Assembly: GCA_014138095.1 (NCBI GenBank)
Contig: JACGXE010000009.1
Location: 62,001-126,000 of the forward strand
Direction: 5' to 3'
Source: Ochrobactrum sp. RH2CCR150
GTDB lineage: Bacteria > Pseudomonadota > Alphaproteobacteria > Rhizobiales > Rhizobiaceae
Length of the DNA: 64,000 nt
Shown here: positions 37,842 through 42,153 of the stretch, piece by piece
Layout: every line of letters starts with the position of its first letter
Position numbering within the stretch: position 1 is the stretch's first letter
Translations under genes and position numbers: made by a program
Notes under the pieces: generated by a model
What the model saw: the letters and a program-made list of their open reading frames with translations, nothing else
Told to the model about the DNA's origin: nothing
Databases searched by the model: none

Positions 37842-39194
37842 ATGCCGATCAATATCACCATGCCAGCGCTTTCTCCCACGATGGAAGAAGGCAACCTGTC
37901 GAAATGGCTGGTTAAGGAAGGCGACAAGGTTACGTCCGGCGATGTGATTGCCGAGATCGAAACCGACAAGGCCACGATGGAAGTCGAGGCTGTTGACGAA
38001 GGCACCGTTGCAAAGCTGGTTGTTCCGGCTGGCACCGAAGGCGTCAAGGTCAACGCGCTGATCGCTATTCTGGCCGCTGATGGCGAAGACGTCGCGGAAG
38101 CAGCAAAGGGCGGCGGCGTTGCCGCACCCAAGGCGGAAGCAAAAGCCGAGGCTCCGAAGGAAGAGCCAAAGGCCGAGGCCAAGAAGGACGCTGCACCTGC
38201 TGCAGCGCCTGCTCCGGCAGCCGCTGCGCCCGCACAGGCACCTGCGAAGGGCGAACGCGTTTTCGCTTCGCCGCTGGCCCGCCGTATCGCCAAGGACGCC
38301 GGCGTCGATATCGCTGCCGTGAAGGGTACCGGTCCTCATGGACGTGTCGTTCAGCGCGATGTGGAATCCGCTATTCAGTCGGGCGGTGCTAAAGCAGCTG
38401 CTGCTGCGCCGCAGGCTGCTGCCAGCGCTCCCGCTGCCAAGCCGATGTCGGACGATGCCGTTCTCAAGCTGTTCGAGGAAGGTTCTTACGAAATCGTGCC
38501 GCATGACGGCATGCGCAAGACCATTGCTCGCCGTCTGGTGGAATCGAAGCAGACCGTTCCGCATTTCTACCTGACGATCGATTGCGAACTCGATGCGCTT
38601 CTGGCGCTTCGCGCGCAGATCAATGCGGCTTCGCCGCTGGTCAAGACCGAGAAGGGCGAGGTTCCGGCCTACAAGCTCTCTGTCAACGACATGATCATCA
38701 AGGCGACAGCTCTGGCGCTTCGCGATATTCCGGAAGCCAATGTTTCCTGGACCGAAGGCGGCATGATCAAGCACAAGCGTTCGGATGTCGGCGTTGCCGT
38801 CTCCATTTCGGGCGGCCTGATTACGCCAATCGTCCGCCATGCGGAAAACAAGACGCTTTCCGCCATCTCCAACGAGATGAAAGATCTGGCCAAACGCGCG
38901 CGTGATCGCAAGCTGAAGCCAGAGGAATATCAGGGTGGTTCGACCTCGGTTTCCAACCTCGGCATGTTCGGCGTCAAGGATTTTGCCGCCATCATCAACC
39001 CGCCGCATGCGACCATTTTCGCAATCGGCGCAGGTGAAGAACGCGTCGTGGTGAAGAAGGGCGAGATGAAAGTGGCGACAGTCATGTCGGTCACGCTTTC
39101 CACCGATCACCGCGCAGTCGATGGCGCTCTTGCCGCCGAACTGGCGCAGGCCTTCAAGCGCCACATCGAAAATCCGATGGGCATGCTGGTCTGA
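37842..39194 (+). CDS. pdhC: Pyruvate dehydrogenase E2, dihydrolipoyl acetyltransferase
   Basis: Core of the complex, moving the acetyl group from the lipoyl arm to CoA. The 450-residue protein has one lipoyl domain (Lys43), a long Ala/Pro/Lys linker (about 85-140), a peripheral subunit-binding domain ([17 protein letters not shown], about 142-178) and a C-terminal catalytic domain with the active site [14 protein letters not shown]. It starts 16 bases after pdhB. Confidence 0.97.
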
Positions 39195-39204
39195 TGGAAT
39201 TGAA

Positions 39205-39245
39205 GCCGCGCCTGTCTTTGCAGAAGATACGAAGACAGGCGCGGC
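39205..39245 (+). terminator. 14-bp hairpin between pdhC and lpdA
   Basis: GCCGCGCCTGTCTT (39205-39218) pairs perfectly with AAGACAGGCGCGGC (39232-39245), with a 13-base loop, then CTTTC. It starts 11 bases after pdhC and ends 31 bases before lpdA. It is probably a partial terminator or stability element that sets lpdA below pdhABC. Confidence 0.6.
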
Positions 39246-39276
39246 CTTTCCGCTTTCAGGAATAAGGGCAAGAACT

Positions 39277-40740
39277 ATGGCCGACATTTACGACGTTATT
39301 GTTATTGGATCGGGACCGGGCGGTTACGTAACCGCGATCCGTGCTGCACAGCTGGGCCTCAAGACGGCAATCGTCGAGCGCGAGCATCTGGGCGGCATCT
39401 GCCTCAACTGGGGCTGCATTCCGACCAAGGCGCTGCTGCGTTCGGCGGAAATCCTGCATTTCGGTGAACATGCCAAGGACTACGGTCTGAAGCTGGAAGG
39501 CACCATCACGCCGGACGTGAAAGCTGTAGTGCAGCGTTCGCGCGGCGTTTCGGCGCGTCTCAACGGCGGCGTCGCCTTCCTTATGAAGAAGAACAAGATC
39601 GACGTGATCTGGGGCGAAGCCAAGCTTGTTAAGGGCGCTTCTGGCTCCAATCCCGCCGAAATCACCGTCGGCAAGACGTCGAAGCAGCCAATGCTGCCGC
39701 AGAATCCGGTGCCGAAGGGCGTGCTGGGCGAGGGCAGCTACAAGGCCAAACACATTATCGTCGCGACCGGTGCGCGTCCGCGTGCGCTGCCGGGTATCGA
39801 GCCAGACGGCAAGCTGATCTGGACCTATTTCGAAGCCATGGTGCCGCAAGACCTTCCAAAGTCGATGCTGGTCATGGGTTCGGGCGCAATCGGCATCGAA
39901 TTTGCATCGTTCTATCACGACATGGGCGTCGATGTGACGGTTGTGGAAGTGATGCCGCAGATCATGCCGGTGGAAGATGCAGAAATCTCCGCCATCGCCC
40001 GCAAGCAGCTTGAAAAGCGCGGCCTCAAGATCATCACCGACGCCAAGGTTGCGAAAGTGGAGAAGGGCGGCAACAACGTCACGGCTTCTATCGAAACCAA
40101 GGACGGCAAGGTGCAAAAGCTGACTGTCGACCGGATGATTTCAGCTGTCGGCGTTCAGGGCAATATTGAGAATCTCGGCCTTGAAGCGCTCGGCGTGAAG
40201 ACGGATCGCGGCTGCATCGTCATCGACGGTTATGGCAAGACCAATGTCGAAGGCATCTACGCTATTGGCGACGTCGCCGGTCCGCCAATGCTGGCCCACA
40301 AAGCCGAGCATGAAGGCACGATCTGCGTTGAAAAGATCGCAGGCCTCCCGAATGTACATTCGCTCGACAAGGGCAAGATTCCGGGCTGCACCTATTGCAA
40401 TCCGCAGGTTGCTTCGGTTGGCCTGACGGAAGCCAAGGCCAAGGAACAGGGTTTCGACATTCGTGTCGGTCGTTATTCCTTCACGGCCAACGGCAAGGCG
40501 ATTGCTCTCGGTGAGGATCAGGGTCTGGTCAAGACGATCTTCGACAAGAAGACCGGCCAGCTTCTGGGTGCGCATATGGTTGGCGCGGAAGTCACCGAGC
40601 TTATCCAGGGCTTCGTGATTGCCATGAACCTTGAGACTACCGAAGAAGAGCTGATGCATTCGGTCTTCCCTCATCCGACCCTTTCGGAGATGATGAAGGA
40701 AAGCGTACTCGACGCTTATGGACGTGTGCTGAACGCATAA
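39277..40740 (+). CDS. lpdA: Dihydrolipoyl dehydrogenase (E3)
   Basis: FAD enzyme that reoxidises dihydrolipoyl groups with NAD. The 487-residue protein has the FAD-binding GSGPGGYVTAIRAAQLG, the redox disulfide Cys42/Cys47 in GGICLNWGCIPTKALL, the NAD-binding VMGSGAIGIEFASFY and the C-terminal His/Glu site HSVFPHPTLSEMMKES. CLNWGC replaces the commoner CLNVGC. The ATG at 39277 is the family start; the longer frame is the shadow of pdhC. Confidence 0.97.
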   Translation: MADIYDVIVIGSGPGGYVTAIRAAQLGLKTAIVEREHLGGICLNWGCIPTKALLRSAEILHFGEHAKDYGLKLEGTITPDVKAVVQRSRGVSARLNGGVAFLMKKNKIDVIWGEAKLVKGASGSNPAEITVGKTSKQPMLPQNPVPKGVLGEGSYKAKHIIVATGARPRALPGIEPDGKLIWTYFEAMVPQDLPKSMLVMGSGAIGIEFASFYHDMGVDVTVVEVMPQIMPVEDAEISAIARKQLEKRGLKIITDAKVAKVEKGGNNVTASIETKDGKVQKLTVDRMISAVGVQGNIENLGLEALGVKTDRGCIVIDGYGKTNVEGIYAIGDVAGPPMLAHKAEHEGTICVEKIAGLPNVHSLDKGKIPGCTYCNPQVASVGLTEAKAKEQGFDIRVGRYSFTANGKAIALGEDQGLVKTIFDKKTGQLLGAHMVGAEVTELIQGFVIAMNLETTEEELMHSVFPHPTLSEMMKESVLDAYGRVLNA

Positions 40741-40741
40741 T

Positions 40742-40779
40742 CCCGAAAAGTTGCAGACTTTTCGAATAAGGTTATGCGG
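40742..40779 (+). repeat. Dispersed palindromic repeat, copy B
   Basis: CGAAAAGT-tgcag-ACTTTTCG (40744-40764) is followed by AATAAGGTTATGCG. It begins one base after the lpdA stop and belongs with copies A, C and D. The hairpin may also act as the lpdA 3' end. Confidence 0.65.
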
Positions 40780-40810
40780 GGAATACCCTTAAAGCAAATA
40801 GGAGACGCCT

Positions 40811-41074
40811 ATTCCGCTGATCGAAAATGGAGGGCCATGGCGGCGTGCCGCCTGGCCGATCATAAAATGGTGTACCGTTATCGGTCTGGCGCTGGGATTT
40901 GTAGCCGGCGTCTTGAGTCTTCTCGGCGGTAACACCATATCGGTCAACGGATTGGCTCTCGCTGGCTGGTACGGTGTCTGGACGCTCACTTTGGCGCTTG
41001 GCGTCGGCGGCTTGGTCTTTGGCCTGATCTGGGCTCTGGTTTTCAGGGCTCTTGGCATGGCCGCGCGGCGATGA
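40811..41074 (+). CDS. Small two-helix membrane protein with an apparent ATT start
   Basis: An 87-residue open frame reads (start)PLIENGGPWRRAAWPIIKW. It has two membrane segments (about residues 17-39 and 56-80) and a basic C-terminus (RALGMAARR). The frame opens at 40802 after a stop; no ATG or GTG occurs before codon 83 and the first TTG is codon 35, inside the first helix. The ribosome site AGGAG (40800-40804) is six bases before ATT (40811), an ideal spacing. So either ATT is used as in infC, or an ATG was mutated. It lies between lpdA and lipA. Function unknown. Confidence 0.6.
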   Translation: MPLIENGGPWRRAAWPIIKWCTVIGLALGFVAGVLSLLGGNTISVNGLALAGWYGVWTLTLALGVGGLVFGLIWALVFRALGMAARR

Positions 41075-41133
41075 GTAGCAAATGGTCCAAGTTGACAGGT
41101 CTTTGGTCAGGGCTTAGGACCGGACCGAATTAA

Positions 41134-41166
41134 GGAGCGTTCCACATTCTTTCGGGAACATGCTCC
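41134..41166 (+). promoter_or_regulatory. Hairpin just before lipA
   Basis: GGAGC-GTTCC (41134-41143) pairs with GGAAC-at-GCTCC (41155-41166), with a two-base bulge. It ends 18 bases before the lipA start, next to the ribosome site, so it could affect translation. Confidence 0.35.
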
Positions 41167-41184
41167 GGATAGGCAGGAAACAGC

Positions 41185-42153
41185 ATGGTTACAGTTCTCA
41201 ATACGGTCAACCAGAGCGGACGTCTGCGGCACCCGGAAAAGGCGCACCGCCCGGACAATGAAGTCCTGAAGAAGCCCGACTGGATTCGCGTCAAGGCTCC
41301 GGTCTCGCGCGGCTATAATGAAACGCGCGAAATCGTGCGTTCCAACAAGCTCGTGACCGTCTGTGAAGAAGCTGGCTGCCCCAATATCGGCGAGTGCTGG
41401 GAAAAGAAGCACGCCACTTTCATGATCATGGGCGAAATCTGCACGCGCGCCTGCGCGTTCTGCAACGTCTCGACCGGCATCCCGACGCCGCTTGATCCAA
41501 ATGAGCCGGAAAATGTCGCCAAGGCTGTCAAACAGATGGGTCTGACCCATGTGGTTATCACCTCGGTGGATCGCGACGATCTGGCTGATGGCGGCGCACA
41601 GCATTTTGCCGACGTCATTCTTGCTATCCGTGCGGCTGCGCCTGCAACGACCATCGAAATTCTGACGCCGGACTTCCTGCGCAAGGAAGGCGCGCTGGAA
41701 GTTGTGGTCAAGGCTCGCCCGGACGTGTTCAATCACAATCTGGAAACTGTGCCGTCGCGCTACCTTAAGGTTCGTCCCGGTGCACGTTATTTCCACTCGA
41801 TCCGCCTGTTGCAGCGTGTCAAGGAACTCGATCCGACCATTTTCACTAAGTCCGGTATCATGGTTGGCCTTGGCGAAGAGCGGAATGAAATCTTGCAGCT
41901 GATGGACGATCTTCGTTCGGCTGACGTGGATTTCATGACCATCGGTCAGTATCTGCAGCCGACCCGCAAGCACCATCCGGTCATTCGCTTCGTGACGCCG
42001 GACGAATTCAAGTCGTTCGAAACCATCGGCAAGACCAAGGGCTTCCTGCTGGTTGCCTCCAGCCCTCTGACGCGTTCTTCGCATCATGCTGGCGACGATT
42101 TTGCAAAGCTGAAGTCGGCCCGCGAAGCGCAGATTGCCAACCGGGCATCGTAA
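41185..42153 (+). CDS. lipA: Lipoyl synthase
   Basis: Radical-SAM enzyme that inserts two sulfurs into octanoyl groups on E2-type proteins. The 322-residue protein has the auxiliary cluster cysteines Cys60, Cys65 and Cys71 ([12 protein letters not shown]), the radical-SAM cysteines Cys86, Cys90 and Cys93 (CTRACAFC) and the C-terminal RSS motif in [11 protein letters not shown]. Its neighbours, PdhB and PdhC, carry the lipoyl domains it modifies. Confidence 0.98.

What the first reader, a model, noticed from the sequence alone, without database searches (positions are those of the whole stretch)
40811..41074. Hidden membrane protein gene that appears to start at ATT, between lpdA and lipA
An 87-codon frame encodes a coherent two-helix membrane protein, but it has no ATG, GTG or TTG before codon 35, which lies inside the first helix. 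A good ribosome site (AGGAG) stands six bases before an ATT. ATT starts are known mainly in infC, where they make expression sensitive to IF3. Standard gene finders would miss this gene. It may be a real ATT start that couples a small membrane protein to translation state, or a recent ATG-to-ATT change. The place in the pdh-lpd-lipA cluster hints at a link with lipoate or PDH.
Basis: partly seen in the sequence, partly recalled or inferred. Interest (0 to 1): 0.75.

Follow-up and report, generated by a model that had tools for sequence, protein, structure and literature searches.

The report
Conserved AUU-start small membrane protein
Between the genes lpdA and lipA this bacterium carries a real small membrane-protein gene that appears to start at the very rare codon ATT, and its relatives keep ATT or another weak start codon there instead of the usual ATG, which suggests that the protein is made at a deliberately low, initiation-controlled level.

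Summary
Window 40811-41074 (+) is an 87-codon two-helix membrane-protein frame, with AGGAG six bases before ATT and no ATG/GTG/TTG before codon 35. It is a conserved gene between lpdA and lipA, under purifying selection (median dN/dS 0.12).

The start column reads ATT in 34 of 35 genomes of the genus and in 2 of 2 of the genus that includes Paenochrobactrum. Pseudochrobactrum has GTG/TTG there, two unnamed genera have TTG/CTG, and more distant members have ATG. ATG stands there in 0 of 66 genomes of the five inner genera, whereas neighbouring lipA starts with ATG in 66 of 66. So ATT is an old, kept start, and the 'recent ATG-to-ATT change' reading is rejected.

infC also appears to start with ATT in 17 of 17 genomes examined. 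A stable stem-loop just downstream of ATT is a new lead: present in the ATT genera, mostly absent with GTG/TTG/CTG starts, and seen in infC of several of these genera, but not in E. coli infC or pcnB.

Initiation at AUU, IF3 dependence and protein function are inferred, not shown. I file it as a new member of a known kind (conserved AUU-start genes); the window protein matches no Pfam or NCBIfam family.

The parts
   Evidence: Open frame 39121-40740; the relatives' matches begin near residue 49-53 of it. Found upstream in 35 of 35 genus loci.
40744..40764 (.). Palindrome CGAAAAGTTGCAGACTTTTCG in the lpdA-ORF gap; 4 exact copies and 7 with up to 2 mismatches in the genome
40800..40804 (+). Shine-Dalgarno AGGAG, six bases before ATT
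   Evidence: SD of 4+ bases in 34 of 35 genus genomes, against 17% of shuffled leaders
40811..40813 (+). ATT, proposed start codon
   Evidence: Same column: ATT in 34 of 35 genus genomes and 2 of 2 g78; GTG or TTG in 7 of 7 g96, TTG in 2 of 2 g50, TTG or CTG in 18 of 20 g63; ATG in 3 of 3 g87/g58
40811..41074 (+). ORF of 87 codons plus stop: two-helix small membrane protein
40832..40858 (+). Candidate mRNA stem-loop (10 pairs here, up to 11 in relatives), codons 8-16; a lead, not established
   Evidence: codons 5-18 fold at -22.4 kcal/mol, z -2.0 against synonymous recodings; weak covariation
40913..40915 (+). TTG, codon 35: the first canonical start in frame, inside helix 1
   Evidence: Open frame; its start column is ATG in 66 of 66 loci of the five inner genera

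Best explanation
A genuine gene for an 87-residue two-helix membrane protein, lying between lpdA and lipA, is translated from an AUU codon placed by a strong Shine-Dalgarno sequence. The AUU is old and kept: in five related genera the start is a weak codon (AUU, UUG, GUG or CUG) and never AUG, so initiation at this gene is held low. Because IF3 destabilises initiation complexes on AUU (established for E. coli infC), expression in the AUU genera should rise when free IF3 falls. Shown here: the gene, its conservation, the position of the start column, the absence of AUG there, and ATT at the infC start in the same genomes. Inferred: actual initiation at AUU, low output, selection for low output, IF3 dependence. 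The role of the protein is open; a membrane function linked to the lpdA-lipA cluster rests on gene order alone.
For: Start column by genome, five inner genera: ATT 36, TTG 20, GTG 4, CTG 3, and CTA, CGG, CGA once each with a TTG one or two codons on; ATG 0 of 66. lipA control: ATG 66 of 66. Outgroup genera: ATG in the column in 3 of 3 g87/g58 genomes. Conserved Ile columns that are ATT throughout: 0 of 27 in lpdA, 0 of 17 in lipA; start column ATT in 33 of 33 distinct haplotypes. SD in 34 of 35. Third-position variability from codon 2 on: 12 of 15 codons, against 5 first and 2 second positions. dN/dS median 0.124. infC ATT in 17 of 17. IF3 repression of non-canonical starts: PMC5472188, passages.
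Against: No expression, ribosome-profiling or N-terminal data. Avoidance of ATG is only modestly supported inside the genus alone: about 2.4 T-to-G changes expected, P of none about 0.09, and 12 of 57 majority-T fourfold sites also show no G. The 66 genomes are related, not independent. One genus member (F. ovis, L113) has lost ATT (CTA; TTG two codons on). 4 of 6 g50 genomes have no match, and single copies in g1 and g63 are broken (L114, L096), so the gene is not always needed. Changes among the weak codons themselves show that AUU is not strictly required across genera.
Confidence: 0.75

Rival explanations
1. The gene is real and starts at AUU, but the weak start is tolerated drift in a lightly used small protein and carries no regulation.
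For: Single copies are broken (G002/L114; G243/L096), and 4 of 6 g50 genomes lack a match. Within the genus alone the lack of ATG has P about 0.09 under a neutral T-to-G rate.
Against: dN/dS near 0.12; SD kept in 34 of 35; ATG in 0 of 66 across five genera that use four different weak codons. In a survey, switches towards AUG are more frequent than switches away from it (PMC5622118, passages).
Confidence: 0.3
2. Expression comes mainly from ribosomes that finish lpdA and reinitiate at the nearby AUU (translational coupling), so that the weak start matters less.
For: The lpdA stop lies 10-31 nt before the start codon in 26 of 35 genus genomes. Three g109 members have an ATG that overlaps the lpdA end or lies just after it.
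Against: The distance is 70-160 nt in 9 of 35 genomes, 70 nt here, and the SD is kept there. Coupling and IF3 control do not exclude each other: extra IF3 lowered reinitiation without an upstream SD in E. coli (PMC2268962, passages).
Confidence: 0.25
3. Translation starts elsewhere: at CTG codon 3, at TTG codon 35, or at an out-of-frame ATG with a frameshift.
For: CTG stands at codon 3 in 32 of 33 haplotypes; TTG at codon 35 is the first canonical start in frame. F. ovis has TTG at codon 3.
Against: Codon 3 is 12 nt from AGGAG and reads CTT in L041. A start at codon 35 would cut helix 1 and would not explain constraint on codons 2-34 (dN/dS 0.0-0.35 in 13 pairs). The ATGs at 40774, 40827 and 40837 are out of frame. 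Sister genera put GTG/TTG/ATG exactly in the ATT column.
Confidence: 0.05
4. The frame is not a gene, or is a decaying remnant.
For: No Pfam match above its cut-off and no NCBIfam match for the window protein; no usual start codon; an 89-codon ATG frame lies on the opposite strand at 40789-41058 (its conservation was not tested).
Against: Found in 35 of 35 genus genomes, dN/dS near 0.12, 42 of 394 family genomes by profile.
Confidence: 0.01

Closest known systems
infC (IF3) AUU start with IF3 autocontrol (E. coli)
   Same: AUU start behind a good SD. infC of this genome and of 16 others also reads AGGAG, 9 nt, ATT.
   Different: infC encodes IF3 itself and so closes a feedback loop; here the product is a membrane protein, and IF3 control is untested.
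E. coli pcnB AUU start
   Same: A non-regulator gene whose expression is limited by AUU (title of the reference cited in PMC1780047, seen).
   Different: Unrelated protein, poly(A) polymerase; no stem-loop at the same place.
Staphylococcal cvfC1 AUU start
   Same: A small protein whose AUU start and strong SD are conserved among staphylococci (PMC13009471, passages).
   Different: A 61-residue possible zinc-finger protein, first in its operon; its start was mapped by Ribo-Ret, this one was not.
Borrelia burgdorferi pncA (BBE22) AUU start
   Same: Databases list a truncated protein because the AUU was missed (PMC13398362, passages).
   Different: One enzyme in one species; tested biochemically and structurally.
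Streptomyces sigR GTC start repressed by IF3
   Same: A non-canonical start that holds expression low; canonical replacements upset the system (PMC5472188, passages).
   Different: Different codon, gene class and phylum; regulation shown there, inferred here.

Membership tests
Genes with a conserved AUU start | AUU in frame behind an SD, with no canonical start that would give the full protein | tested here: met
   Window. Genus: ATT in 34 of 35, SD in 34 of 35. In two of the distinct loci a GTG or ATG lies further upstream in an open frame (L047, L016).
Genes with a conserved AUU start | Homologues place canonical starts in the same column | tested here: met
   GTG/TTG in 7 of 7 g96, TTG in 2 of 2 g50, TTG in 15 of 20 g63, ATG in 3 of 3 g87/g58
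Genes with a conserved AUU start | Initiation at the AUU shown by ribosome profiling or N-terminal sequencing | not testable with these tools
   No such data held
IF3-controlled genes | Expression rises when IF3 is low or faulty and falls with extra IF3 | not testable with these tools
   Only the AUU codon and ATT at infC (17 of 17) point to it
Known protein families (Pfam, NCBIfam) | Score above a curated cut-off | tested here: not met
   Window protein: one Pfam match, 12.1 bits against a cut-off of 24.5; NCBIfam none. Of 21 aligned members, no family is matched by more than one, best E 0.001.
PDH or lipoate-associated genes | Conserved place beside lpdA and lipA | tested here: met
   Both flanks in 35 of 35 genus loci, 22 of 22 and 27 of 27 loci, sets that overlap in part
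PDH or lipoate-associated genes | Physical or genetic interaction with PDH or lipoyl synthesis | not testable with these tools
   Gene order only

The most novel reading that the evidence does not exclude
In these bacteria an AUU start, a strong SD and a stable stem-loop just beyond the front edge of the initiating ribosome form a joint IF3-sensing initiation module, shared by infC and this membrane-protein gene, so that the level of a small lpdA-lipA-linked membrane protein reads out free IF3 or initiation capacity. The stem-loop would have arisen together with the AUU.
Probability: 0.2. Interest if true: 0.8.

Novelty: new member of a known kind. Interest (0 to 1): 0.62.

Why it matters
AUU starts that last are very rare: in one survey 1 of 61,358 ancestral AUG starts and 1 of 5,080 GUG starts became AUU (PMC5622118, passages). 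A gene that keeps AUU through a whole genus, with GUG, UUG and CUG in its sisters and AUG in outgroups, is a natural series for asking whether weak starts are selected and whether IF3 sets the level of genes other than its own. It also shows how a conserved small gene can escape finders that accept only ATG, GTG and TTG.

Tried and rejected
Recent ATG-to-ATT change: rejected (34 of 35 genus genomes; 2 of 2 g78). Start at codon 3 or 35: unlikely (see rivals). Upstream ATGs at 40774, 40827 and 40837: out of frame.

Function: families, PDB folds (best E 1.1, none at 0.001 or below; repeated weak hits to complex I subunits are not significant), Rfam (none), promoter and terminator scans of 40700-41250 (0 and 1 found, 0.4 and 0.7 expected) gave nothing. 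A profile search of 199 genomes drawn from the order found the family only in the window's own genome.

Stem-loop as a general need of AUU starts: not supported. E. coli infC (codons 5-18: -4.3 kcal/mol, z +1.8; codons 7-24: -14.2, z -1.2) and pcnB (-8.5, z -1.0) lack a comparable one. Covariation is weak: 2 pairs and 3 cells changed on both sides, reached by 41 and 3 of 500 shuffles; RNAalifold named no covarying pair and a somewhat different pairing.

A protein tree of lpdA plus lipA (73 loci) joins the 66 inner genomes with support 65 only and does not recover several genera as clades, so the number of origins of ATT is open.

Papers: eight searches listed nothing that I could recognise as this gene; their listings were capped. 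The main text of the S. meliloti small-protein paper (PMC10117765) holds no whole-word ATT, AUU, lipA or lpdA.

Rows dropped: L114 (frameshift) from dN/dS and from ORF site counts; 1 of 34 distinct haplotypes; 2 of 20 g63 and 2 of 7 g96 loci not folded. Not checked: the classical Brucella species by name (none is named).

Full report
What is there. The frame at 40811-41074 (+) reads IPLIENGGPWRRAAWPIIKWCTVIGLALGFVAGVLSLLGGNTISVNGLALAGWYGVWTLTLALGVGGLVFGLIWALVFRALGMAARR and a stop. AGGAG stands at 40800-40804, six bases before ATT. An in-frame TAG lies at 40799-40801, so three codons precede ATT and none is a start. The first ATG/GTG/TTG in frame is TTG at 40913, codon 35. AlphaFold2 on 33 aligned sequences gives helices 9-38 and 53-86 with a short strand pair between them (mean pLDDT 85.2, pTM 0.71). 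Mean hydropathy over 19 residues peaks near 2.0 in both helices.

It is a gene. A search of 35 genomes of the genus, the window's own included, found it in 35 of 35; one copy (G002, L114) is frameshifted. A named collection gave 35 loci under Brucella, Ochrobactrum, Falsochrobactrum, Pseudochrobactrum, one Paenochrobactrum, and some unspecific or odd titles. With a profile of 21 sequences, 42 of 394 genomes drawn from the family match (three of them with a stop inside, five weak ones in one genus), and only the window's own among 199 drawn from the order. dN/dS between genus members has median 0.124, range 0 to 0.325 (561 pairs of 34 genomes). In codons 2-16, third positions vary at 12 of 15 codons, against 5 first and 2 second positions, so translation in this frame covers the stretch before codon 35. 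lpdA and lipA flank it in 35 of 35 genus loci, and in 22 of 22 and 27 of 27 loci of partly overlapping sets.

The start column. One locus per genome, five inner genera, 66 genomes: ATT 36 (34 of 35 in the genus g1, 2 of 2 in g78), TTG 20 (15 of 20 g63, 3 of 7 g96, 2 of 2 g50), GTG 4 (of 7 g96), CTG 3 (of 20 g63), and CTA (F. ovis, g1), CGG and CGA (g63) once each, where a TTG lies one or two codons on. ATG: 0 of 66. The lipA start column in the same loci is ATG in 66 of 66. Outgroup genera g87 and g58 have ATG in the column (3 of 3); the three g109 loci have an ATG further upstream, and the one g95 locus does not align there. So relatives put canonical starts exactly where this genus has ATT, which is the strongest evidence that ATT is the start. 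The names Pseudochrobactrum (g96) and Paenochrobactrum (one of the two g78 genomes) come from matching leader sequences; g50, g63, g87, g58, g109 and g95 are unnamed. Only 2 of 6 g50 genomes carry the gene.

Is ATT specially kept? Among Ile columns conserved in the neighbouring genes none is ATT throughout (0 of 27 in lpdA, 0 of 17 in lipA), while the start column is ATT in 33 of 33 distinct haplotypes at 78% identity or more. It is not the only invariant codon of the ORF: codons 7, 43 and 44, among others, never vary either. An SD of four or more bases with spacing 6-8 stands in 34 of 35 leaders, against 17% after shuffling. Whether ATG is avoided by selection is less certain. Fourfold sites predict about 2.4 T-to-G changes for such a site on the genus tree (P of none about 0.09), and 45 of 57 majority-T fourfold sites have a G somewhere, so 12 do not. 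The 0 of 66 adds weight but is not a sample of 66 independent cases.

IF3. infC of this genome and of 16 further genomes of eight genera reads AGGAG, 9 nt, ATT at the start column (17 of 17); in 5 of the 17 the frame opens only eight codons upstream, with no canonical start. IF3 represses AUU in E. coli infC and a GTC start in Streptomyces (PMC5472188, passages). That this ORF responds to IF3 is inference.

A possible second element. Codons 8-16 can fold into a stem-loop of 10-11 pairs (window 40832-40858). For codons 5-18 the minimum free energy is -22.4 kcal/mol here and -16.1 to -24.8 across the genus. It is lower than synonymous recodings at z -1.5 or below in 27 of 35 genomes (p at most 0.05 in 25 of 35); in the three later segments of the ORF low z values are only scattered. 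Both g78 copies (ATT) have it (-22.8, z -2.0; -20.5, z -1.3). Of 25 folded loci with other starts in g96, g50 and g63, 1 has z below -2. infC has a stem-loop in the same place in 10 of 10 loci of g1, g78, g96 and g50 (-16.8 to -17.4, z -1.3 to -2.5), while in g63 and the outgroups it is no more stable than recodings (z -0.8 or higher, 7 of 7). Of 48 ORF starts picked mechanically in the window, none reaches -22 and one reaches -17. Against it: ATT and stem-loop may simply share descent; differences in the protein confound the comparison; covariation is weak; F. shanghaiense (L018, L110) keeps ATT with a weak fold (z 0.0); infC of g96 and g50 has the fold although this ORF has other starts there; E. 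coli infC and pcnB have none comparable. I treat it as a lead. In S. meliloti the front edge of initiating ribosomes lies at +16 (PMC10117765, passages), so this stem would begin about six bases beyond it.

Mechanism. Most likely the SD recruits 30S subunits, the AUU makes the complex easy for IF3 to reject, and the protein is made at a low level that rises when IF3 is scarce. A share of initiation may come from ribosomes leaving lpdA, whose stop is 10-31 nt upstream in 26 of 35 genomes, but 70 nt in this one. The function of the protein is unknown beyond a membrane hairpin tied by gene order to lpdA and lipA.

Known or new. AUU starts are known at E. [quoted passage not shown] that text writes pncB and cites the pcnB paper). 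They are described for Borrelia pncA (PMC13398362, passages), and for staphylococcal cvfC1, where non-canonical starts gave about 10% of AUG in reporters in one medium (PMC13009471, passages). This gene is a new member of that kind. Its protein matches no Pfam or NCBIfam family above a cut-off, and no family is shared by the aligned members. I did not recognise it in eight paper searches, which cover only open-licence papers and gave capped lists.

Noticed in passing
L115 (infC of the window's genome, G000:C1, match at 253911-254408): infC appears to start at ATT after AGGAG and 9 nt, as it does in 17 of 17 genomes examined, with a stem-loop in codons 5-18 in the loci of four genera.
   Followed up: yes
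window 40744-40764: Palindrome CGAAAAGTTGCAGACTTTTCG in the lpdA-ORF gap, 4 exact copies and 7 with up to 2 mismatches in the genome, none for the reversed control. It looks like a small dispersed repeat and may account for the longer gap here.
   Followed up: partly
window 40937-40942 (codons 43-44): ATA TCG is invariant in 33 of 33 distinct haplotypes, although no conserved Ile column of lpdA or lipA is ATA throughout; reason unknown.
   Followed up: no
window 40789-41058, - strand: An 89-codon ATG frame runs opposite to the ORF and could be called instead by a gene finder; its conservation was not tested.
   Followed up: no
L089, L090, L117 (unnamed genus g63): The homologue seems to start at CTG, with no ATG/GTG/TTG at or just before the column.
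   Followed up: partly
L066, L067, L069 (g96): lpdA of these loci is 83-84% identical to the window's, against 89-90% in L068 and L070-L072, and they part from their genus in the lpdA plus lipA tree: possible replacement of lpdA by transfer.
   Followed up: no
L034 (JAHREI010000002.1): A record titled Bacillus subtilis SK6B4 carries a Pseudochrobactrum-like locus: probably a mislabelled or mixed assembly.
   Followed up: no
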